A stretch of DNA of 21,897 nt from a virus, in IMG/VR virus record IMGVR_UViG_3300044960_000317, positions 1 through 21,897 of that record. The stretch is one strand, 5' to 3'. The notes beneath the pieces are model-generated. The model made no database searches. It worked only from the letters and a program-made list of their open reading frames with translations, and was not told the DNA's origin. Each line of letters begins with the position of its first letter. The first letter of the stretch is position 1. A program made the position numbers and the translations under genes. Shown piece by piece: positions 240 to 11,703 of the stretch.

Positions 240-286
240 ACCGCTCGGGCTTTCTCTGGCTGAGGGAAGGGATGCACGATTCTCAT
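89..286 (-). pseudogene. Remnant of M23 endopeptidase gene start fused to out-of-frame sequence
   Basis: The ATG at 286 overlaps the stop of the fibre-assembly gene as ATGA, so it could be translated. The first residues, MRIVHPFPQPEKAR, match the start of the intact M23 endopeptidase at 14508 (MRVVHPFPQPERAR), and the DNA around both starts is conserved. After about 14 codons the similarity ends. The remaining frame (to a stop at 89, 65 aa in total) is the out-of-frame shadow of the neighbouring exported-protein copy. No catalytic residue of the peptidase remains. It is most likely a deletion scar that is still translatable rather than a functional gene. Confidence 0.65.
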
Positions 287-759
287 GGTTCGTCCTCGGG
301 GGGTGCTGGCTCGGGCTCTGCCAGAAGCTCGAATCGGAGCGGCAACGCCTCCCACCCTACCCATTCCGGCCAAGGGATTTTATTTACCACTTCTACGCTT
401 TCGGCCTTTTCCAGCTTCTGGAGCAGCGCCTTTGCCTCCCGCTCTAGCGCGTCCAGCGCGTCGTAGTAGGCGTTCAGGGTTTGCCGTTCGCTGTCGGCTA
501 TGCGCCCGAGTTGCAGCTTAGCCATCAGGTCGGTGAAATGGTCGGGGCGCAAGCGCTCGCTTGCGCTGGCTAGCGCGACTTTTACGCGGTTGGCGGCCTC
601 CTGACGCGCCAACTCGAGCCATTCAGCCTCGAGTTCGGCTTGTAGCGCCTCGAGGTCTACATCGCTCCGGAATCCGCTGATGATGAGTGTGTCGTTCTCG
701 CGTCTTGTGATGATGCCTGATTCAGAGTAGGGTAGCAGTTTGAATATTACGCTGTTCAT
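283..759 (-). CDS. Putative tail fibre assembly / fibre-associated protein
   Basis: A 158-aa protein directly downstream of the tail fibre gene, with its ATG 9 nt after the fibre stop and a strong ribosome site (GGAGGTTACT before the ATG). Residues about 35-125 are rich in Ala, Glu, Leu and Arg and should form long helices. The C-terminus (IPWPEW.GWEALP, then an acidic Pro/Glu tail) is more irregular. The position immediately after the fibre is where Mu-like phages carry the fibre assembly chaperone (Mu U-type), and that is the only basis for the role; I do not recognise a specific family motif. Its stop overlaps the ATG of the M23 remnant by 4 nt. Confidence 0.55.
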   Translation of the reverse strand: MNSVIFKLLPYSESGIITRRENDTLIISGFRSDVDLEALQAELEAEWLELARQEAANRVKVALASASERLRPDHFTDLMAKLQLGRIADSERQTLNAYYDALDALEREAKALLQKLEKAESVEVVNKIPWPEWVGWEALPLRFELLAEPEPAPPEDEP

Positions 760-768
760 AGTAACCTC

Positions 769-1905
769 CTATCTGATTTCAAATTCAGCCCAGATGCCAG
801 CCCCATTACCGGTATCAGTGTTGGACCCTGAGCTATTTACAATCCCTAACTCCACATACGCAAGAGAAGAATTACTAAGTTGTTGATTTATTTCGATTTC
901 TCCATAATGATCTGAGCCTGTCCATGTAGATAATGTTGATGCGATACGAGGTCGTAATACTGTGCCGAATGTCGACCATCTAACTCTTCGCAAATAAAGC
1001 GATTTGCCTGATGGTAAAGAAACTCTATTAGATCCAATTACTTTAATATCGTTTGCAAGAACGGTAATATTGGGTGTATACGCCTGCACCACAAACCTGT
1101 TCTGGTGGTCGTAGCGGCCAGAAATTTCGTTGACTATAACCCGCCCGCTATCACGCTCTGCCCTGAAAACCTCACCTAGAAAGTTGCCCGCATCATCATA
1201 TCTCCATAAATAAAAGTTCGCGCCCGCGTTACTACCGCTCTCATTCCCCCCTAGGCCCAGAGCCCAGCGCAGGCCTGCGGTTCGCAGTTCTATATGGCGA
1301 TTCCCTGCTGCGGAGGTTCCCGCAGTGGTATTTGCCTGAGGCAAAGATAGCGCCCCGCTCATAGTGTCCCCGGCTTTGTTGACGGGGGTATAGCCCAGAT
1401 GCCCCACCACTGCCCCAGATGCCAGTTTGGCGGCGGTTACAGCGCCATTCACTATATGTGCACTAGCGATGCTGTTATCGCGCACATCCTGGGCCAGGCG
1501 GCCAGACCCATCAAGTGTCGCCAGCCCAAGGTTGGCCCCTTTTAGGTCTCTCTCGAGATGAATCCAGCGCCCACCGCCTGAAGCCGTTAGTACCCACAGG
1601 CCGTCAACCGTGGCGCTGGACGAGACGAATAGCCTATAAAGACCATATCCATCCACGCTCACGATGTCGCCATCAGCAAATCCCGAGGCCGCCGAGAGCG
1701 CCGAGCGAGAAGCGAACTGGCGGATGCGCTTGGTTCCGATACCCTCTAGAGTCAAGCGCGACTGATGCAGATTCTCGGTCCTGTCCAAGACAGCCTGGAT
1801 GGCCGCCTCGAGCGGCCCCAGCGTCAGCGGCTCATCGTTGCCTGCGAGCGGAAAGTTGGGGATGCTGGTGGGGAAGGTGTTTACTGGGTTCAGTGTTTTG
1901 GGCAT
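769..1905 (-). CDS. Tail fibre protein with AT-rich C-terminal tip
   Basis: A 378-aa phage fibre. The N-terminal part (residues 1-60) probably attaches to the baseplate. Residues 110-165 carry fibre-shaft style repeats (LDGSGRLAQDV, IVNGAVTAAKLASGAV). Residues 170-187 are the GYTPVNKAGDTMSGAL motif that recurs in many phage tail fibres. The last 107 or so residues are a beta-rich tip likely to bind the host receptor. That tip is encoded by DNA of strikingly low GC: by my count 89 of 240 bases in 841-1080 are G or C, against well over 60% in the neighbouring genes. The ATG follows the stop of the tailspike gene directly, with ribosome site AGGAGG. The fibre call is confident; receptor specificity is unknown. 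Confidence 0.85.
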   Translation of the reverse strand: MPKTLNPVNTFPTSIPNFPLAGNDEPLTLGPLEAAIQAVLDRTENLHQSRLTLEGIGTKRIRQFASRSALSAASGFADGDIVSVDGYGLYRLFVSSSATVDGLWVLTASGGGRWIHLERDLKGANLGLATLDGSGRLAQDVRDNSIASAHIVNGAVTAAKLASGAVVGHLGYTPVNKAGDTMSGALSLPQANTTAGTSAAGNRHIELRTAGLRWALGLGGNESGSNAGANFYLWRYDDAGNFLGEVFRAERDSGRVIVNEISGRYDHQNRFVVQAYTPNITVLANDIKVIGSNRVSLPSGKSLYLRRVRWSTFGTVLRPRIASTLSTWTGSDHYGEIEINQQLSNSSLAYVELGIVNSSGSNTDTGNGAGIWAEFEIR

Positions 1906-3543
1906 TTATACCTCCTGTAACTCGTAGGCACCGATATCGGGTGCTCCCCGCAGCCTGGGCAGGCCGTCCAGGTCGTAATCGGGGAGCTGGCTAAGCAGTG
2001 CCCCTGCGTTGATGGCCGGGCTGCTTTGCAGCAGCCTGTAGTTGCCGTTTCCGCTGGCCTGGTAATCCACGAATCTCGGGTCGGCGTTGATGCTGTTCTG
2101 GTGGGTGCTACTGGCCAGGGCCCAGTTGGTAGGGTTATTCCAGACGAGATTGTTGATGAACTGGTTGACCCCTGTTTGCGCCACCTCCTGCACCCCGTAG
2201 GAGCCATTGAGAGCGAAGATATTGTTGGCCACGATATAGCCATCAACGGTGAACCCAGGAATGTCGGTACCGAGCGAGAGGCCTCCATACCGGCAGTTCA
2301 CCACCGTGTTGTTGATGATTCGGCCGTCTTTCGGTCGATGCCAGTTATCTAGGCCGTAGCCCCGCACGCGATGCACCAGATTCCCACGCACCAGCGCCCC
2401 ATAGCCCTGAGCGTAAATACCGTGAATCCAGTTGCAAGGCCCTGCCGAGTAATCTCCAATATCGCGCACCACGTTGTAAGAGGCCTCGCAGTTTTCCGAG
2501 TACGCTGAAAGTACGATGCCTGCGCCGCCGTCTGAATCGCAGGGTGGAACAATGTCGTGCACATAGCACCACATCACCCGGTTGTTCTGATACACATTGG
2601 CCGGATTATATGTCCAGGACATGATTCCGACCCTGGACGCCCCATATACCTCAAACCCGATGACATCCACATAACTACCGCCGATGGTGATGCCGTAGTT
2701 GTTGCCCGTAGCGTTGATTTTAGCCCCATGCTTATTGTGGGACATCACCACAATACGGTTGGTTGGTGTTCCGCTTCTGTTGATGTGGACGTACTCGTTG
2801 TAGACGCCATCCATCACCCGCAGCACATCTCCGGCGACAAGCTGGCTGATCGCGTAGTTGATGGTCGCCCAGGGCTGGCTTTGGGTGCCGGGGTTGCTGT
2901 TTGAGCCCGTTGGCGCCACGTAAAAGGTGCGGAGCCCGATGGGGTTTGGGTAGTAGGCCTGCTCGGGCCAGAGCTGGATTGGGGGTGCCCCCCAGACCTG
3001 GCCAGGAGGATCCCAGGTCAGCCCGGCGGGGTCCCAGGTCAGGGGACCGGCGGGCACGTATTGCAGGCTGGCCAGCCGGGCGTGGGCGGGTTTGATCTGG
3101 TTGATCACGGCCAGGATGCGGTTGCGCTCCTCTTGCGAGCCGTCGTAGCTACGGGTGCCAGCGTACAGGTATACGTCGATCTCGCTCCAGCGCGTGTTGT
3201 CGTAGTTGCGCACCGGCACTATGGCGCTGTTGTAGCCGAGCTGAGAGAGGGCCAGGCCCAGGCCGTACTCGGTGCCCGACCACTGCCAGAACTCCCAGGC
3301 CCCCAGCACCCGCGCCCGAAAAGCGTCGCCGGATTCGCCTGGATAGCGGGTCAGGGTACGCTCGGCCCCCAGGGTGGCTAGAGCATCTTCTGGCGCTCGA
3401 GCCGCAAAACGAGCCAGCACCCCCGTGGCGGTCAGCGAGGCGCTCTCGTCCAGCACGGCCCCCAGGACCTCAGCCCAGCGCCGCCCCGCGTCCCCCTGGA
3501 GCCAGGGGGGTTGCACTCGTACCAGCCATTCCCGGTAGCTCAT
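1906..3543 (-). CDS. Baseplate gp48-like domain fused to right-handed beta-helix tailspike
   Basis: A 545-aa protein. Residues 1-165 resemble a Mu gp48/P2 I-type baseplate protein (YPGESGDAFRARVLGAWEFW, then RWSEIDVYLYAG and ILAVINQIKPAHARL), and the gene lies right after baseplate J, where gp48 belongs. Residues 166-200 are a Trp/Pro linker with repeated TWDP-like units. From residue 207 a different protein begins: FYVAPTGSNSNPGT, then many short Asn/Gly/Val-rich coils (NNTVVN, ANNIFALNG, INNLVWNN) typical of a parallel beta-helix of the pectate-lyase-like class. It ends with the DPRF...SPAINAG...PDIGAYE signature found at the C-terminus of many such helices. Its likely role is to anchor a polysaccharide-binding or -cleaving spike to the baseplate. 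No catalytic residues can be assigned by eye. The start overlaps the previous stop as ATGA. Confidence 0.85.
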   Translation of the reverse strand: MSYREWLVRVQPPWLQGDAGRRWAEVLGAVLDESASLTATGVLARFAARAPEDALATLGAERTLTRYPGESGDAFRARVLGAWEFWQWSGTEYGLGLALSQLGYNSAIVPVRNYDNTRWSEIDVYLYAGTRSYDGSQEERNRILAVINQIKPAHARLASLQYVPAGPLTWDPAGLTWDPPGQVWGAPPIQLWPEQAYYPNPIGLRTFYVAPTGSNSNPGTQSQPWATINYAISQLVAGDVLRVMDGVYNEYVHINRSGTPTNRIVVMSHNKHGAKINATGNNYGITIGGSYVDVIGFEVYGASRVGIMSWTYNPANVYQNNRVMWCYVHDIVPPCDSDGGAGIVLSAYSENCEASYNVVRDIGDYSAGPCNWIHGIYAQGYGALVRGNLVHRVRGYGLDNWHRPKDGRIINNTVVNCRYGGLSLGTDIPGFTVDGYIVANNIFALNGSYGVQEVAQTGVNQFINNLVWNNPTNWALASSTHQNSINADPRFVDYQASGNGNYRLLQSSPAINAGALLSQLPDYDLDGLPRLRGAPDIGAYELQEV

Positions 3544-4634
3544 ACTTCCTGCCAGGTCAGGGTGGGGCTAAGCACCAGGGCCTCCGTGGCGGCCATGGGC
3601 ACGTCACCGGCGGGGGCGGATAGGGCCACGTTCACCGCATAGGGCCGAGCGAACAAAGCCTCTATGAGCCTGGAGCGGTACAGGGTGCCTCCTATGGGCG
3701 TCTCCCTTTGGAGGGCCGTGAGTTCGGAGGCTACGGCGCCCTGGGCCTGGGCCAAATACCCGGCCCGCACCTGAATGGTGGCGGTGACCGCTACCGTCCT
3801 AGGGGTGGCCGCGTACACCAGCACGTTCGCCGTCACCGGCCTGCGGGCCTGGATGTAGGTATCCACCGCGCTCACCACGCTTGGGCCGATGCCGCCCTCG
3901 CCCCAGACCACCACGTCCACCGTCCCCTGGCCCCTCGGGTGGTTGTCCAGGACCCTCACCTTCGTGACGCTGGGGTGGGCCGAAAGCGCCCAGTACTCGT
4001 AGGCGGCCCGGGTGGAGCCACCCCCGAGCTCGGCCCACCGAGCCCGGCACCGGGTCCGTAGCGCGTCGTCCGACTCCTCATCCACCCCGGCCTCCAGGAG
4101 CCAGCCAGGCGGGTTCGTCACGCTCACCCCAGGAAGGGGGGTGTGAAGGACGGTGATGGCCCCGTCCGGCACGTTCCAGGCCGCGCCGGGGCTCTCAGCC
4201 CGGACCTCCAGGTCCAGCGTGCCGCCCTGGGGGAGGGTGCCTCCGGTGGTGTTGTTGAAGCGCCGTCCGTCCGGGGTCCCCACCCACAGGTCGCCGGGGG
4301 CGATGGTGTAGGGCCCCATGCCGGGTTCGGCGGTGAGCCGCACTGTCCCACGAGCAAACACGGCGGGCTTCCGTTGAACGGCGTAGAACTCCTCGGCAAT
4401 GAGGTCCAGCCAGGGGCCCTCGGCGTAGGAGAGGAACCCGCCCCGTGCGATAGCGGCGATAGTGAGCCACAGGTCCTCCAGCCCCAGGGCCGGGGTCTCC
4501 ACCGCCACATGGCGGCCCACGCTCCCCGGCACGAAGTCGGTGAGCGGGAAGCCATTTCTGCTCAGCTCGTCCAGGATGAGCTGGCGAAGCTCGTCGCGGG
4601 TCCGGGGCCTGATGAGTTCATCCAGGGTAGGCAT
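3540..4634 (-). CDS. Baseplate J-like protein (Mu gp47)
   Basis: A 364-aa wedge protein of the contractile tail baseplate. The N-terminus (TRDELRQLILDEL...) and the following segments ARGTVRLTA, IAPGDLWVGTPDGRRF, VRAESPGAAWNVPDGAI and DEESDDALRTRCRARWAELGGGST are the usual baseplate_J order, followed by the VTKVRVLDNHPRGQGTVDVVVWG segment around residues 230-252. The length fits the family. The ATG at 4634 lies inside the end of the gpW/gp25-like gene (17 nt overlap) with a GAGG site just upstream. The stop overlaps the start of the gp48-like fusion gene. With its neighbours it forms the wedge module. Confidence 0.92.
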   Translation of the reverse strand: MPTLDELIRPRTRDELRQLILDELSRNGFPLTDFVPGSVGRHVAVETPALGLEDLWLTIAAIARGGFLSYAEGPWLDLIAEEFYAVQRKPAVFARGTVRLTAEPGMGPYTIAPGDLWVGTPDGRRFNNTTGGTLPQGGTLDLEVRAESPGAAWNVPDGAITVLHTPLPGVSVTNPPGWLLEAGVDEESDDALRTRCRARWAELGGGSTRAAYEYWALSAHPSVTKVRVLDNHPRGQGTVDVVVWGEGGIGPSVVSAVDTYIQARRPVTANVLVYAATPRTVAVTATIQVRAGYLAQAQGAVASELTALQRETPIGGTLYRSRLIEALFARPYAVNVALSAPAGDVPMAATEALVLSPTLTWQEV

Positions 4635-5004
4635 TCAGCACCTCCACACTCACCCGGTCCACCCGGGCCACGAGCTCAAAGGGGCCCTCATCTGCCTCCC
4701 CCCGGATTTGGACTACAACCTCATGGGGCCAGCGGTGCTCAACGGTCGCCGCGGCGGAGAGAACCCTCGGGTCTTTCTCGCACTCCTGTTCCACCAACAT
4801 GCGCATCTCCTCCAGGAGCTCAGGGGTAACCGTCTCGTTCAGGTACTGCCGCAGATCCAGGCCGTAGGTGGGGGCGTACCAGAGGGCCCCCCTGGGCGTG
4901 ACCAGTCTCCGGACCAGGGCCTCGGCCAGGTTGCGGAAGCCCGAAACCGTTTGGTTCAGGGCCAGGTCAGGAAGCGCGGTGATGTCGGTCCCAAAATCGG
5001 CCAT
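4618..5004 (-). CDS. GPW/gp25-like baseplate wedge protein (Mu gp46)
   Basis: A 128-aa protein. The segment LNQTVSGFRNLAEALVRRLVTPRGALWYAPTYG (residues 16-48) is the standard core of the gpW/gp25 family, followed by a helical part (LLEEMRMLVEQECEKDPRV) and a beta C-terminus. It forms part of the baseplate wedge next to J. The ribosome site AAAGGAG lies upstream of the ATG at the very edge of the inserted mini-element (5005-5364), so the insertion left this gene's translation signal in place. It overlaps the following J gene by 17 nt. Confidence 0.9.
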   Translation of the reverse strand: MADFGTDITALPDLALNQTVSGFRNLAEALVRRLVTPRGALWYAPTYGLDLRQYLNETVTPELLEEMRMLVEQECEKDPRVLSAAATVEHRWPHEVVVQIRGEADEGPFELVARVDRVSVEVLNAYPG

Positions 5005-5030
5005 ACCTCACAAAACTCCTTTCGCGGATG

Positions 5031-5050
5031 CCCCGCACTTCAATGCGGGG
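5031..5050 (+). repeat. Left-end hairpin of the mini-element
   Basis: A seven-base-pair stem, CCCCGCA and TGCGGGG, around the loop CTTCAA, followed by AGGAAG. It shares sequence design and orientation with the hairpin at 5339-5358. Directly repeated imperfect palindromes at both ends are the recognition structures of Y1 (TnpA) transposases. Confidence 0.7.
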
Positions 5051-5224
5051 AGGAAGCGAAAGCCGCTCGCAGAGCGGTGCGACCTCCAAAACTGGATTTG
5101 TGGTATGATGCCTTCATGCGCAGCAACCCCACGCCTACCGTCTGTGACGGCCTTGCAGCGGCGTGCAAAGTTGGCGTGCGCGTTGGCGCAGCGGCTGGTC
5201 TGCCACGTCATGGGCCGCCTGACA

Positions 5225-5360
5225 CGGCCCGTCTGGGGCAACCCGGACAGGCTGCTCCCGCTGGGGAGCGGCTGGATGGAGTAAAGGTGTGGGCTTCGGC
5301 TCATGCAGACTCCAACCTTGAAAGTTCCGCGTAGGAACCCCCGTTCTTCAGAACGGGGAG
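5225..5360 (+). ncRNA. Possible omega-RNA-like 3' end of the mini-element
   Basis: In TnpB elements, the RNA read through the right end carries the scaffold and then takes the adjacent flank as guide. The segment here is GC-rich, ends with the typical GGAACCCCCG-hairpin-GGAGG pattern, and is followed by the phage flank starting ATATCAGCCC. Whether it is transcribed is unknown. A TATGAT hexamer at 5104-5109 on the same strand could be a -10 element, without a convincing -35. This is an inference from the right-end pattern only. Confidence 0.35.
5339..5358 (+). repeat. Right-end hairpin of the mini-element
   Basis: A perfect eight-base-pair stem, CCCCGTTC and GAACGGGG, around the loop TTCA, followed by AGG, and then 6 nt later by the stop codon of the spike gene on the other strand. 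In TnpB-type elements this hairpin is also the last stem of the guide (omega) RNA. Confidence 0.75.
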
Positions 5361-5364
5361 GATA

Positions 5365-5883
5365 TCAGCCCGAAAAGGTCTTCCCGGAACCAGAGATGAT
5401 CTCACCTGTTGCCGTGGCCGAGCCTGGGGCCACCCCGTAGACCTGGATTTGGTCACCCACTCGAGCCACGGCTGGGCCTCCACCGGCTAACTGAATGGTT
5501 GGAGCATCAATCTCTACGAGCAGCGGGTCCTCTACCCGGATTTTTTGGTTTTCGTCGTCTAGCCGCACCTTGGCCCCCCGCTCGGTCTTGATCTCCACCA
5601 CCAGGGTGCTCCCCGCCTCCCAGAGGTAGGCTACCGGGCGGCGGGGGTCGGCCGCCTCAAACCCCAGGAGGACCCGGGCCCCTGCCTTCACCTTCACGTA
5701 AGTCCCAGGGAGGAAGACCCGAAGGGGCACCCTAGTCATGAGGGGTAGCTTTGGATTATCTGGCTGAAGGTCTAGATGCATGTTGCCGTGGTCCTTCAGC
5801 ACGGTGGCCGGGTACAGGGCCAGATAGTCCAGCTCCAGGGGGCGGGAAAGGGCCTCCAGGGCACGCCGCACGCGGTCACGCAT
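5365..5883 (-). CDS. Baseplate spike / assembly protein V (Mu gp45-like)
   Basis: A 172-aa protein. I chose the ATG at 5883 because GGAGGT lies 5 nt upstream; an upstream extension exists but lacks a site. Residues 1-45 form the N-terminal part. An OB-fold-like beta region follows (VPLRVFLPGTYVKVKAGARVLLGFEAADPRRPVAYLWEAG). The C-terminus runs GGGPAVARVGDQI...GEIISGSGKTFSG and looks like the PAAR-style tip found in many gpV proteins. The Mu gp45 HxH iron-binding tip is not visible. It should form the central membrane-piercing spike. The stop lies 5 nt from the presumed end of the mini-element, so the last residues may have been changed by the insertion. It overlaps the upstream hub gene by 8 nt. 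Confidence 0.8.
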   Translation of the reverse strand: MRDRVRRALEALSRPLELDYLALYPATVLKDHGNMHLDLQPDNPKLPLMTRVPLRVFLPGTYVKVKAGARVLLGFEAADPRRPVAYLWEAGSTLVVEIKTERGAKVRLDDENQKIRVEDPLLVEIDAPTIQLAGGGPAVARVGDQIQVYGVAPGSATATGEIISGSGKTFSG

Positions 5884-6556
5884 CCCACACCTCCACACCT
5901 AGGTTTTGGGGGTCCAGGTAGTAGACCACCCGCTCGGTCTTGATGGGGGCGACCTTCCCGCCCAGCCACACGGGGAGCGTGGTGCCCGGCCGGACGGGGC
6001 CCAGCAGGGGGAGGCGGTACACCCCGGACGCTACGGCGCGGCTGGCCTTCACCTCAGGGGTTGGGGGCCACTCTGGGGCCGTCACCTCCACCTGGCCCTT
6101 CTCGTTCACCCTCCACACCCGGCCGATGGCCTGCGTGAGGCGGTCCAGGAGGCGATAGGCGGGCTCCTCATACCGAGTCCAGACGGGAAGGGTGGTATCG
6201 GCGTCCAGCTCCCCGGCCTCCTCCCCCACCTCGTTCAGGGCGTCCAGGATGGCCACCCGGGCGGGCACGTTCCGGTAAAACTTGGGTTTGAGGACCTTGT
6301 GGAGCCGGGCTTTCCCCGCCACCCACCGCACCCAGGCCCAGCCCTCGGGGGTGCGGCGAACGCCCAGGGCCGCGCCCTGGAGGGTGAGGGTGCCCTCGGG
6401 GAGCTCCAAGGTGAGCGTCCGGGTGGCCCCAGGCCCCAGGCTGAGCTCGGAGTGGGGCACGCCCATGAGGAGCGTGGCCTCGGCACGCCCAAAGGCGGGC
6501 CAGGAGAGCTGGCCCCCGGCGATGGGCTCGTCCTTCGTGAAGTAGAAGGCGGGCAT
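5876..6556 (-). CDS. Probable baseplate hub protein (Mu gp44 / gpD position)
   Basis: A 226-aa protein between a baseplate protein and the spike, the position of the Mu P/gp44 hub. It is predicted to be mostly beta strand (RTLTLELPEGTLTLQGAALGVRRT). A helical segment about residues 132-146 (EPAYRLLDRLTQAIGR) followed by WRVNEKGQVEV resembles the way hub proteins load on the spike. It is shorter than Mu gp44 (about 380 aa), so it may be a compact hub or a different hub component. ATG at 6556, with GAGG upstream. The call rests mainly on position and overall fold pattern. Confidence 0.55.
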   Translation of the reverse strand: MPAFYFTKDEPIAGGQLSWPAFGRAEATLLMGVPHSELSLGPGATRTLTLELPEGTLTLQGAALGVRRTPEGWAWVRWVAGKARLHKVLKPKFYRNVPARVAILDALNEVGEEAGELDADTTLPVWTRYEEPAYRLLDRLTQAIGRVWRVNEKGQVEVTAPEWPPTPEVKASRAVASGVYRLPLLGPVRPGTTLPVWLGGKVAPIKTERVVYYLDPQNLGVEVWDA

Positions 6557-10293: not shown

Positions 10294-11703
10294 CTACTTG
10301 GCCACCTTCAAGGCCGGGTTCTCAAACCCGATGTCCACCGTGACGTATTTGGCGTAGCCCAGCGGGATGATGCTGACGCTCACGGGCAAGCGGCGGCTGG
10401 AGAGGATGTTCTCGGTGCGGTCCACCCACACCCGAACGGCGGGCTGGCCGTTCTCCTCGCTGACCTTCCCCTTGAGGGCCGCCCTGAGCATCCCGGCGAT
10501 GTAGCCTTCCACCCTGATGGCGTCTCGTTCGGCGATGCCCCCGGTGGCGGGGTCCACCAAAATGGAGTCGTTCACGAACCGGAGGCCCGCCTGGTAGGCC
10601 ACGGTGCAGGCCAAATCCATGACCGAGCGGTACTGGTCAAGCTCAAAGTCACTTCCCGGAGGGGCCATGAGGCGGCCCTGGGTGAGGAAGTAGCCCGCAT
10701 ACGCCGGGTAGGTGCGGGCGGTGGTGAACCGGGCCTCGTCCAGCCCCGGCGTGACGTACTCGTCCCGGAGGAGCCTGGCCACCCCCACCAAAGGCCCAGA
10801 GGCCACCCGGCCAACGTCCTCCTGGGCCGGGCGAGCGGCGCGGCGACCGGCCCACAACCAGGCGATGGGGCGGCGGTGCACCCGGCCGGTGATGGGGCTG
10901 GCGATCTCGGCGTACCCGGCCCCCACGCCCACACGGACAGAGGCAAAGCTGACCCAGGCGGTGCGCAGGTTGGAATCGCTGTCGTCGGCGGCCTCGAGCA
11001 GCGCCCAGATGTAGCGGTGCTGGGTGGCCGCCTCCCCCATGCGAGCGTCCACACCGGCCGCTACGACAGGCGTTGCCGCCCCCACCACATGGATGAACTG
11101 GTAGCGAAGCTGGGCCTGGGCGAAGAGTGCGTTGATGGCGTTGTTCAGGTCGCTGAGGGTGTAGCTGGGGGCGGTGGTGGTGAAGCTGAACGCGTCCCCC
11201 GCGTCAAAGGTGCCCGCAAAAGTGAGAGTGAGCCCGGTGCCGGGCACGCTGTAAGTCCCCCCGGAGGGCACGGCGATCTCCGGGCTAACGGTGTCGCCCC
11301 CGTCCAGGGTGTAGGTGAAAGCGGCGGTGCCAAGACCGCCGGACCGGGTGAGCTTCACCTGGACCTCGTAGGCGTCAAGAGGAGAGCCCCCCACGGTGAG
11401 GGTGCCGGTAGACGAGGCGGCTCGAGTGACAGTAACGGCGGAAGCGGAGCCAGCCACGCTAGCGTTGGCCCGCACCGCGTAGATGGCCCCCGCGCCCTGG
11501 GCGAACGCTACACCGATGGCCTCGAGGAGCGGGCCGGAAGCGAACACTTCTTTGGCCCGCTTGGTGTCGGAAAGCGACACCACCTCGTTTACAGGCCCGG
11601 CGCTGGCTACGCCAATTTTGACGTGCACGCCCTCCCCGAGGGCAGGGAGCACGCCAAGGTTGCCGTCCTGGATGTTCAGCGAAACACCCGGCAGGTTAGG
11701 CAT
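10294..11703 (-). CDS. Contractile tail sheath protein (Mu L-like, DUF2586-type)
   Basis: A 469-aa protein that starts with MPNLPGVSLNIQDGNLGVLP, as sheath proteins of this type do. A beta-rich inserted domain (about 85-185: TGTLTVGGSPLDAYEVQVKLT...FDAGDAFSFTT) is followed by the sheath core (LSDLNNAINAL, IHVVGAATPVV, RRPIAWLWAGRRAARPAQEDVGRVASGPL). The C-terminal handshake region is RVWVDRTENILSSRRLPVSVSIIPLGYAKYVTVDIGFENP. It wraps the tube and contracts on infection. Translation is favoured by an exceptionally long Shine-Dalgarno sequence (11717-11707), fitting a highly expressed structural protein. It overlaps the upstream small gene by 8 nt. Confidence 0.92.
   Translation of the reverse strand: MPNLPGVSLNIQDGNLGVLPALGEGVHVKIGVASAGPVNEVVSLSDTKRAKEVFASGPLLEAIGVAFAQGAGAIYAVRANASVAGSASAVTVTRAASSTGTLTVGGSPLDAYEVQVKLTRSGGLGTAAFTYTLDGGDTVSPEIAVPSGGTYSVPGTGLTLTFAGTFDAGDAFSFTTTAPSYTLSDLNNAINALFAQAQLRYQFIHVVGAATPVVAAGVDARMGEAATQHRYIWALLEAADDSDSNLRTAWVSFASVRVGVGAGYAEIASPITGRVHRRPIAWLWAGRRAARPAQEDVGRVASGPLVGVARLLRDEYVTPGLDEARFTTARTYPAYAGYFLTQGRLMAPPGSDFELDQYRSVMDLACTVAYQAGLRFVNDSILVDPATGGIAERDAIRVEGYIAGMLRAALKGKVSEENGQPAVRVWVDRTENILSSRRLPVSVSIIPLGYAKYVTVDIGFENPALKVAK

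What the first reader, a model, noticed from the sequence alone, without database searches (positions are those of the whole stretch)
1906..3543. Baseplate gp48-like domain and beta-helix tailspike in one polypeptide
The gene order (J, then this gene, then fibre) puts it at the gp48 position, and residues 1-165 look like a baseplate protein. Residues 207-545 are a parallel beta-helix with the DPRF...SPAINAG...PDIGAYE end found in carbohydrate-active helices. The two parts are joined by a short Trp/Pro linker with repeated TWDP-like units and read as one uninterrupted frame. Normally the spike is a separate protein docked on the baseplate. Here each wedge would carry a permanent spike, alongside the separate fibre encoded next to it, giving two adhesion devices. 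That would tie host-surface polysaccharide binding or cleavage directly to the contraction trigger.
Basis: partly seen in the sequence, partly recalled or inferred. Interest (0 to 1): 0.75.

Follow-up and report, generated by a model that had tools for sequence, protein, structure and literature searches.

The report
Phage wedge protein carrying sugar-handling domain
A Meiothermus phage with a contractile tail has welded a sugar-directed beta-helix domain, related to proteins from its hosts' own slime-making gene clusters, onto the baseplate protein that normally only holds the tail fibre, so each virion probably carries six built-in polysaccharide tools beside its fibres.

Summary
Gene 1906-3543(-) is one intact 545-aa frame. 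Residues 1-193 are a wedge protein of the P2 gpI / Mu gp48 / pyocin Tri2 kind (Pfam Tail_P2_I above cut-off; Foldseek hits to solved wedges). Residues ~205-545 are a right-handed parallel beta-helix ending in a choice-of-anchor-Q domain. The same fusion occurs in four distinct sequences, one in the cultured strain M. taiwanensis DSM 14542, so it is not an assembly artefact.

Two corrections. The TWDP 'linker' is the normal C-terminal tail of gpI: a triple-Trp motif present in nearly all unfused relatives, where the stop follows at once. The beta-helix is therefore a cassette inserted between gpI's last codon and the fibre gene, and it has recombined at that joint. It is also not a classical trimeric tailspike. 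Its closest relatives (45-49% identity) are lipoproteins in Meiothermus exopolysaccharide loci. It is strongly conserved (dN/dS 0.055-0.10), while the retained fibre's tip varies.

Best reading: a single-copy wedge protein carries an EPS-directed domain, probably an enzyme; the fibre keeps host choice and triggering. Precedent: Bacillus phage Vp4 Gp119, a wedge with carbohydrate-binding modules. Activity and the contraction link are untested.

The parts
1906..3543 (-). gpI-type baseplate wedge protein fused to a parallel beta-helix, 545 aa
   Evidence: Single open frame; same fusion in L002, L003, L004, L008, L009
3049..3543 (-). Residues 1-165: gpI / Tail_P2_I / Tri2-type wedge domain (Pfam match residues 45-153 = 3085-3411)
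   Evidence: PF09684 above cut-off; AF2 model of residues 1-192, pLDDT 78; Foldseek hits to phiCD508, phi812, pyocin R2 Tri2 and diffocin wedges
2992..3036 (-). Residues 170-184: triple-Trp motif WDPAGLTWDPPGQVW, native C-terminal tail of gpI, probable fibre-docking site
   Evidence: Present in 20 of 21 gpI proteins examined, fused or not; unfused proteins stop 9 residues after its last Trp; docking role inferred from XM1 gp17 and A-1(L) gp32 (PMC10457771, PMC10966104)
1909..2964 (-). Residues 194-545: inserted beta-helix cassette; begins where unfused relatives have their stop codon
   Evidence: Comparison with occupied and empty sites; breakpoint in L009 at this joint; absent from unfused records
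1915..2079 (-). Residues 489-543: choice-of-anchor-Q domain (DPRF...SPAINAG...PDIGAYE)
   Evidence: NF041518 38.2 bits, cut-off 25
3540..4634 (-). Baseplate J (wedge partner)
   Evidence: PF04865 E 2.4e-47; phrog_6 baseplate wedge subunit E 4e-67
769..1905 (-). Separate tail fibre, 378 aa, start codon directly after the fusion's stop (TAAATG)
   Evidence: phrog_4013 (unknown function) and phrog_892 tail fiber; homologues annotated tail fibre in MMP7 and Riverbug; the gpI loci examined all have this fibre gene
283..759 (-). 158-aa gene after the fibre, possible fibre chaperone
   Evidence: Position and length as in MMP7; no family hit below E 0.01
10294..11703 (-). Tail sheath: shows the tail is contractile
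   Evidence: phrog_907 tail sheath E 4.2e-37

Best explanation
The protein is a P2 gpI / Mu gp48-type wedge subunit, which by homology is present once per wedge, so six per virion. A monomeric parallel beta-helix cassette has been added after its fibre-docking tail. The cassette belongs to a family of lipoproteins encoded in Meiothermus exopolysaccharide (EPS) loci, and it most likely acts on host EPS, more likely by cutting or modifying it than by binding alone. Fixed to the wedge, six such domains would hold or open the slime layer under the baseplate, while the separate trimeric fibre docks on the retained triple-Trp tail, sets host specificity and triggers contraction. Shown by computation: the fusion, family assignments, insertion point, recombination at the joint, purifying selection and EPS-locus relatives. 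Inferred: copy number, EPS as substrate, catalysis, order of events at the cell surface.
For: Wedge identity: Tail_P2_I above cut-off; Foldseek best hits are all wedge proteins of contractile systems; KPAH motif shared with Mu gp48. Cassette: unfused relatives stop exactly where it starts and the same fibre gene follows; no copy in the records of unfused phages. Mobility: window gpI is 83% identical to unfused L005 but 66-70% to other fused ones, while its beta-helix is 86-88% identical to theirs; L009 has J and gpI 99.7-100% as L004, then switches to L002 at the joint. Constraint: beta-helix dN/dS 0.055-0.10, gpI 0.09-0.41. EPS link: 10 of 18 congeneric genomes carry 45-49% identical homologues, in two copies about 15 kb apart in five genomes, in one annotated case flanking epimerase, DegT aminotransferase, GT4, Wzy_C and flippase genes; an Azospirillum homologue (34%) also sits in an EPS cluster. 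Conserved C335, D336, C370, H374 shared with all Meiothermus host homologues aligned, H402 with most. Wedge proteins anchor fibres or spikes and are proposed to relay the trigger: PMC10457771, PMC10966104, PMC11915804, PMC10996793.
Against: No catalytic site could be assigned: matches to known lyases cover only the N-terminal ~50-75 residues. The beta-helix was not modelled with confidence (pLDDT 20-40). What the host lipoproteins do is unknown; they might bind or anchor EPS rather than cut it. Direction of transfer is unresolved: phage copies form one clade on a long stem whose place among the host copies is unsettled.
Confidence: 0.6

Rival explanations
1. The beta-helix only binds host EPS, as a built-in low-affinity adhesin on each wedge, with no enzymatic activity.
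For: Direct precedent: wedge Gp119 of Bacillus phage Vp4 carries carbohydrate-binding modules absent in Deep-Blue Gp177, and GFP-Gp119 decorates cells while Gp177 does not (PMC11406892). No full-length match to a known lyase or hydrolase. Host lipoproteins could tether EPS.
Against: Very strong purifying selection and conserved Asp/His/Cys positions fit an enzyme at least as well; adhesion domains such as the neighbouring fibre tip diversify.
Confidence: 0.3
2. The beta-helix is a true tailspike-like receptor-binding device whose engagement triggers contraction.
For: gpI homologues connect to the fibre or spike and are proposed to pass its signal on to the wedge and sheath (PMC10996793, PMC10457771); a permanently attached domain would pull on the wedge directly.
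Against: One copy per wedge does not fit a homotrimeric tailspike; no tailspike family match for residues 205-545; the fibre is retained in every fused phage; it joins gpI through a probably flexible W/P-rich tail.
Confidence: 0.12
3. The domain has a lysogen-side or accessory role, such as altering surface EPS to block superinfection, and is only passively carried on the wedge.
For: The phages are found as prophages in Meiothermus genomes, and the host uses related domains at its own surface.
Against: No signal peptide or lipobox remains; it lies inside a late structural gene behind baseplate J.
Confidence: 0.04
4. The fusion is an assembly or sequencing artefact joining two genes.
For: Window and several relatives are environmental contigs.
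Against: Same in-frame fusion in four distinct sequences, including cultured M. taiwanensis DSM 14542, with conserved joint and purifying selection.
Confidence: 0.01

Closest known systems
P2 gpI / Mu gp48 / pyocin R2 PA0619 (Tri2) / XM1 gp17 wedge proteins (Pfam Tail_P2_I)
   Same: Residues 1-193: fold, Pfam match, place between J and fibre, KPAH motif shared with Mu gp48; unfused relatives of the same phages are ordinary gpI proteins of about 200 aa
   Different: Carries a 352-aa beta-helix after the docking tail; lacks the internal loop at the place of Mu gp48's fibre-docking loop
Vp4 Gp119, baseplate wedge 3 with carbohydrate-binding modules (Bacillus phage, PMC11406892)
   Same: Wedge protein just before the fibre gene with added carbohydrate-directed domains that a close relative (Deep-Blue Gp177) lacks
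   Different: Added modules there are CBM folds at residues 268-425 and 685-799; here a single beta-helix at the very C-terminus, related to host EPS-locus proteins and possibly catalytic
Beta-helix lipoproteins of Meiothermus EPS loci (L041, L046-L067)
   Same: 45-49% identity over the whole beta-helix, same conserved Cys/Asp/His positions, same choice-of-anchor-Q end
   Different: Host copies have a lipoprotein-type leader, some a bacterial Ig domain, in place of gpI
PL9 lyases (Pel9A-like beta-helix, PelN) and GH120 xylosidase
   Same: N-terminal beta-helix segment matches
   Different: No match beyond the first ~50-75 residues; catalytic residues not identified
Trimeric phage tailspikes such as P22 TSP (from general knowledge)
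   Same: Beta-helix on a phage tail facing host polysaccharide
   Different: No separate trimeric spike protein; part of a single-copy wedge subunit; not matched by tailspike families

Membership tests
gpI / Tail_P2_I wedge proteins | Profile match over the core domain | tested here: met
   PF09684 residues 45-153, 23.3 bits vs cut-off 20.6
gpI / Tail_P2_I wedge proteins | Wedge fold like pyocin Tri2 | tested here: met
   Model pLDDT 78; Foldseek 9gb2_M E 9e-5, 9euk_D 4e-4, 6u5b_0 (Tri2) 1.2e-3, 8v3w_4 1.3e-3, 8kea_c 0.025; TM-scores only 0.35-0.49
gpI / Tail_P2_I wedge proteins | Gene order J - I - fibre in a contractile-tail cluster | tested here: met
   J at 3540-4634, fibre at 769-1905, sheath at 10294-11703
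gpI / Tail_P2_I wedge proteins | One copy per wedge, six per baseplate | not testable with these tools
   Known for homologues (PMC10457771, PMC11915804)
DUF2313 | Profile match to DUF2313 | tested here: not met
   No match listed at E<=1
Right-handed parallel beta-helix (Pel9A-like / DUF1565 / choice-of-anchor Q) | Profile matches above curated cut-offs | tested here: met
   PF22842 26.7 vs 25.2, PF07602 26.2 vs 20.3; NF041518 38.2 vs 25; DUF1565 matches 16 of 16 members of A4
Right-handed parallel beta-helix (Pel9A-like / DUF1565 / choice-of-anchor Q) | Predicted beta-helix fold | tested here: inconclusive
   AF2 with a thin alignment gave pLDDT 20-40 for this part
PL9 polysaccharide lyase | Full-length match and catalytic residues | tested here: not met
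   Match to 5olq only over its first ~47 residues; PelN 38.9 bits vs cut-off 740
Trimeric tailspike depolymerase | Separate homotrimeric spike with virion-anchoring N-terminus | tested here: not met
   Domain is part of a wedge subunit; no tailspike family match for residues 205-545. Oligomeric state itself not testable
Meiothermus EPS-locus beta-helix proteins | Full-length homology of the beta-helix | tested here: met
   45-49% identity, E 1e-82 to 1e-90 over residues 206-543
Meiothermus EPS-locus beta-helix proteins | Lipoprotein signal and EPS-locus position | tested here: not met
   Phage copy has gpI in that place and lies in a tail cluster

The most novel reading that the evidence does not exclude
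The phage lineage captured a domain from its hosts' own EPS-locus proteins and plugged it into the one wedge subunit that relays the fibre signal. This would give six permanent monomeric EPS enzymes per baseplate, mobile between phages as a cassette. In addition, the triple-Trp motifs of gpI would form a docking code, one Trp repeat per subunit of a trimeric fibre and one triplet per fibre, that predicts how many fibres each wedge carries.
Probability: 0.35. Interest if true: 0.7.

Novelty: new variant of a known kind. Interest (0 to 1): 0.55.

Why it matters
It shows a compact way to arm a simple contractile tail: a carbohydrate-directed domain becomes part of the wedge itself and needs no separate docked spike. 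The comparison of empty and occupied sites gives an exact joint after the gpI tail that nature has used and recombined. The link to host EPS-locus proteins makes a testable claim about the substrate. The triple-Trp tail offers a sequence test for fibre number per wedge.

Tried and rejected
The second fold job went to the N-domain. (2) Further phage relatives of the beta-helix in IMG/VR: only the known fused loci. (3) MT837514 hit spanning residues 178-280: a separate secreted beta-helix protein, not a gpI fusion. (4) Extra copies of the beta-helix in unfused phage records: none. (5) Rooting phage versus host copies: unresolved. (6) hhalign of the gpI alignment with Mu gp48: only the KPAH helix aligned, probability 1.9%, weak on its own. 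(7) Literature: no paper found describing a gpI-beta-helix fusion; the library holds open-licence papers only. (8) I read the upstream neighbour of the host beta-helix gene as Wzz-like by eye; Pfam gave no hit, so it is not counted as shown.

Full report
WHAT IS THERE. Gene 1906-3543(-) encodes 545 aa in one frame. The window is a whole 21,897-base IMG/VR record. It carries terminase, portal, head, sheath, tape-measure and baseplate genes, so it is a contractile phage or prophage. The closest relatives with known host come from Meiothermus.

N-TERMINAL PART. Residues 45-153 match Tail_P2_I above cut-off. An AF2 model of residues 1-192 from 20 related sequences reached pLDDT 78. Its best matches among solved structures are wedge proteins: phiCD508, phi812, pyocin R2 Tri2, diffocin, a Streptomyces contractile injection system and cyanophage A-1(L). 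E-values run from 9e-5 to 0.025 and TM-scores from 0.35 to 0.49, so the match is at the family level and not close. Mu gp48 carries the same KPAH motif. DUF2313 gave no match.

THE 'LINKER'. Unfused relatives (L005-L007, L010-L012, MMP7, MMP17 and others) end ...LNWNPAGLTWNPPGQVWGAPPVVLYP-stop or a close variant, followed within 8-15 bases by the fibre gene's ATG. The fused proteins read ...QVWGAPPIQLWP-EQ and continue for about 350 residues. Their stop overlaps the same fibre start (TAAATG). So the TWDP units are gpI's own tail. Of 21 gpI proteins examined, 20 have a W-x5/6-W-x5/6-W type triplet after KPAH. Most of the more distant ones (Thermus phage Riverbug and relatives) have a second triplet before KPAH, at the place of the Mu gp48 fibre-docking loop 133-155 (PMC11915804). 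Because XM1 gp17 and A-1(L) gp32 dock fibres or spikes through their C-terminal stretches (PMC10457771, PMC10966104), the triplet is probably the fibre-docking site. One repeat per fibre subunit is my inference.

CASSETTE BEHAVIOUR. The window's gpI is 83% identical to unfused L005 but only 66-70% to the other fused proteins. Its beta-helix is 86-88% identical to theirs. L009 is 99.7-100% identical to L004 through J and gpI, then switches to L002 identity near the joint. The beta-helix is missing from the records of unfused phages. Fused phages keep the fibre: 378, 366 and 244 aa.

BETA-HELIX RELATIVES. PF22842, DUF1565 and choice_anch_Q score above cut-off. Similarity to characterised lyases or glycosidases covers only the N-terminal stretch, so no enzyme class is assigned. 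A search of genomes related to M. taiwanensis found 45-49% identical homologues in 10 of 18 genomes of its genus, and none as close in the other genomes searched in its phylum (111 in all). They carry lipoprotein-type leaders by eye. In five genomes two copies lie about 15 kb apart. One such stretch, annotated with Pfam, holds a galactose-oxidase-like protein, epimerase, DegT aminotransferase, GT4, Wzy_C ligase/polymerase and flippase genes between the two copies. An Azospirillum homologue (34%) also lies beside O-antigen ligase and tyrosine autokinase genes. The phage copies form one clade on a long stem, so capture is old or evolution was fast, and direction is open.

FUNCTION. Beta-helix dN/dS is 0.055-0.10; for gpI it is 0.09-0.41, with saturated synonymous sites in distant pairs. 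The fibre C-termini vary widely. C335, D336, C370 and H374 are shared with every Meiothermus host copy aligned and H402 with most. This favours an enzyme or tightly constrained binder acting on a constant feature of the host EPS, with specificity left to the fibre. In solved systems one gpI sits in each wedge and connects to the fibre or spike, and a role in passing on the contraction signal is proposed (PMC10457771, PMC10996793). Six monomeric beta-helices per virion therefore follow by homology. A direct contraction trigger through the beta-helix is neither supported nor excluded.

NOVELTY. Wedge proteins with added carbohydrate modules are known: Vp4 Gp119 against Deep-Blue Gp177 (PMC11406892). 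Many predicted viral proteins with this N-terminal fold are long, so appended domains may be common; I did not survey them. A beta-helix at this position, related to host EPS-locus proteins, was not found in the papers searched. I rate it a new variant of a known kind.

LIMITS. Environmental contigs may be fragments. The fold of residues 194-545 rests on profiles only.

Noticed in passing
window 5010-5368: A short inserted element between the gp25-like gene (4618-5004) and the next gene (5365-5898); this gap is 2-3 bases in MMP7 and Riverbug. Full-length relatives (L117, L118) encode a 413-434 aa TnpB-like protein (by eye: zinc-finger and NADVVASLNIA motifs). The window copy lacks most of that gene but holds an Rfam HgcC RNA match at 5210-5381 (54.2 bits, cut-off 50), perhaps an orphan TnpB guide RNA.
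   Followed up: partly
L016, L022-L034 and window 2992-3036: gpI proteins carry regular triple-Trp motifs: one in the Meiothermus phages examined, two in most of the more distant relatives, three in L023 and L034. They may be docking sites for trimeric fibres, one Trp repeat per subunit.
   Followed up: partly
L074 (1163-17920); same pair spacing in L071, L072, L073: Meiothermus EPS loci are bracketed by two paralogous beta-helix lipoproteins about 15 kb apart; in L074 a galactose-oxidase-like protein lies beside one of them. Function unknown.
   Followed up: partly
window 283-759: 158-aa gene after the fibre with no family match below E 0.01; the MMP7 gene at that position is annotated 'AMP-dependent synthetase', which looks wrong for a probable fibre chaperone.
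   Followed up: no
L105 (G008:C68:29056-29664): Genome G008 carries a second, divergent gpI with the double triple-Trp pattern on the same contig as a Meiothermus-type gpI.
   Followed up: no
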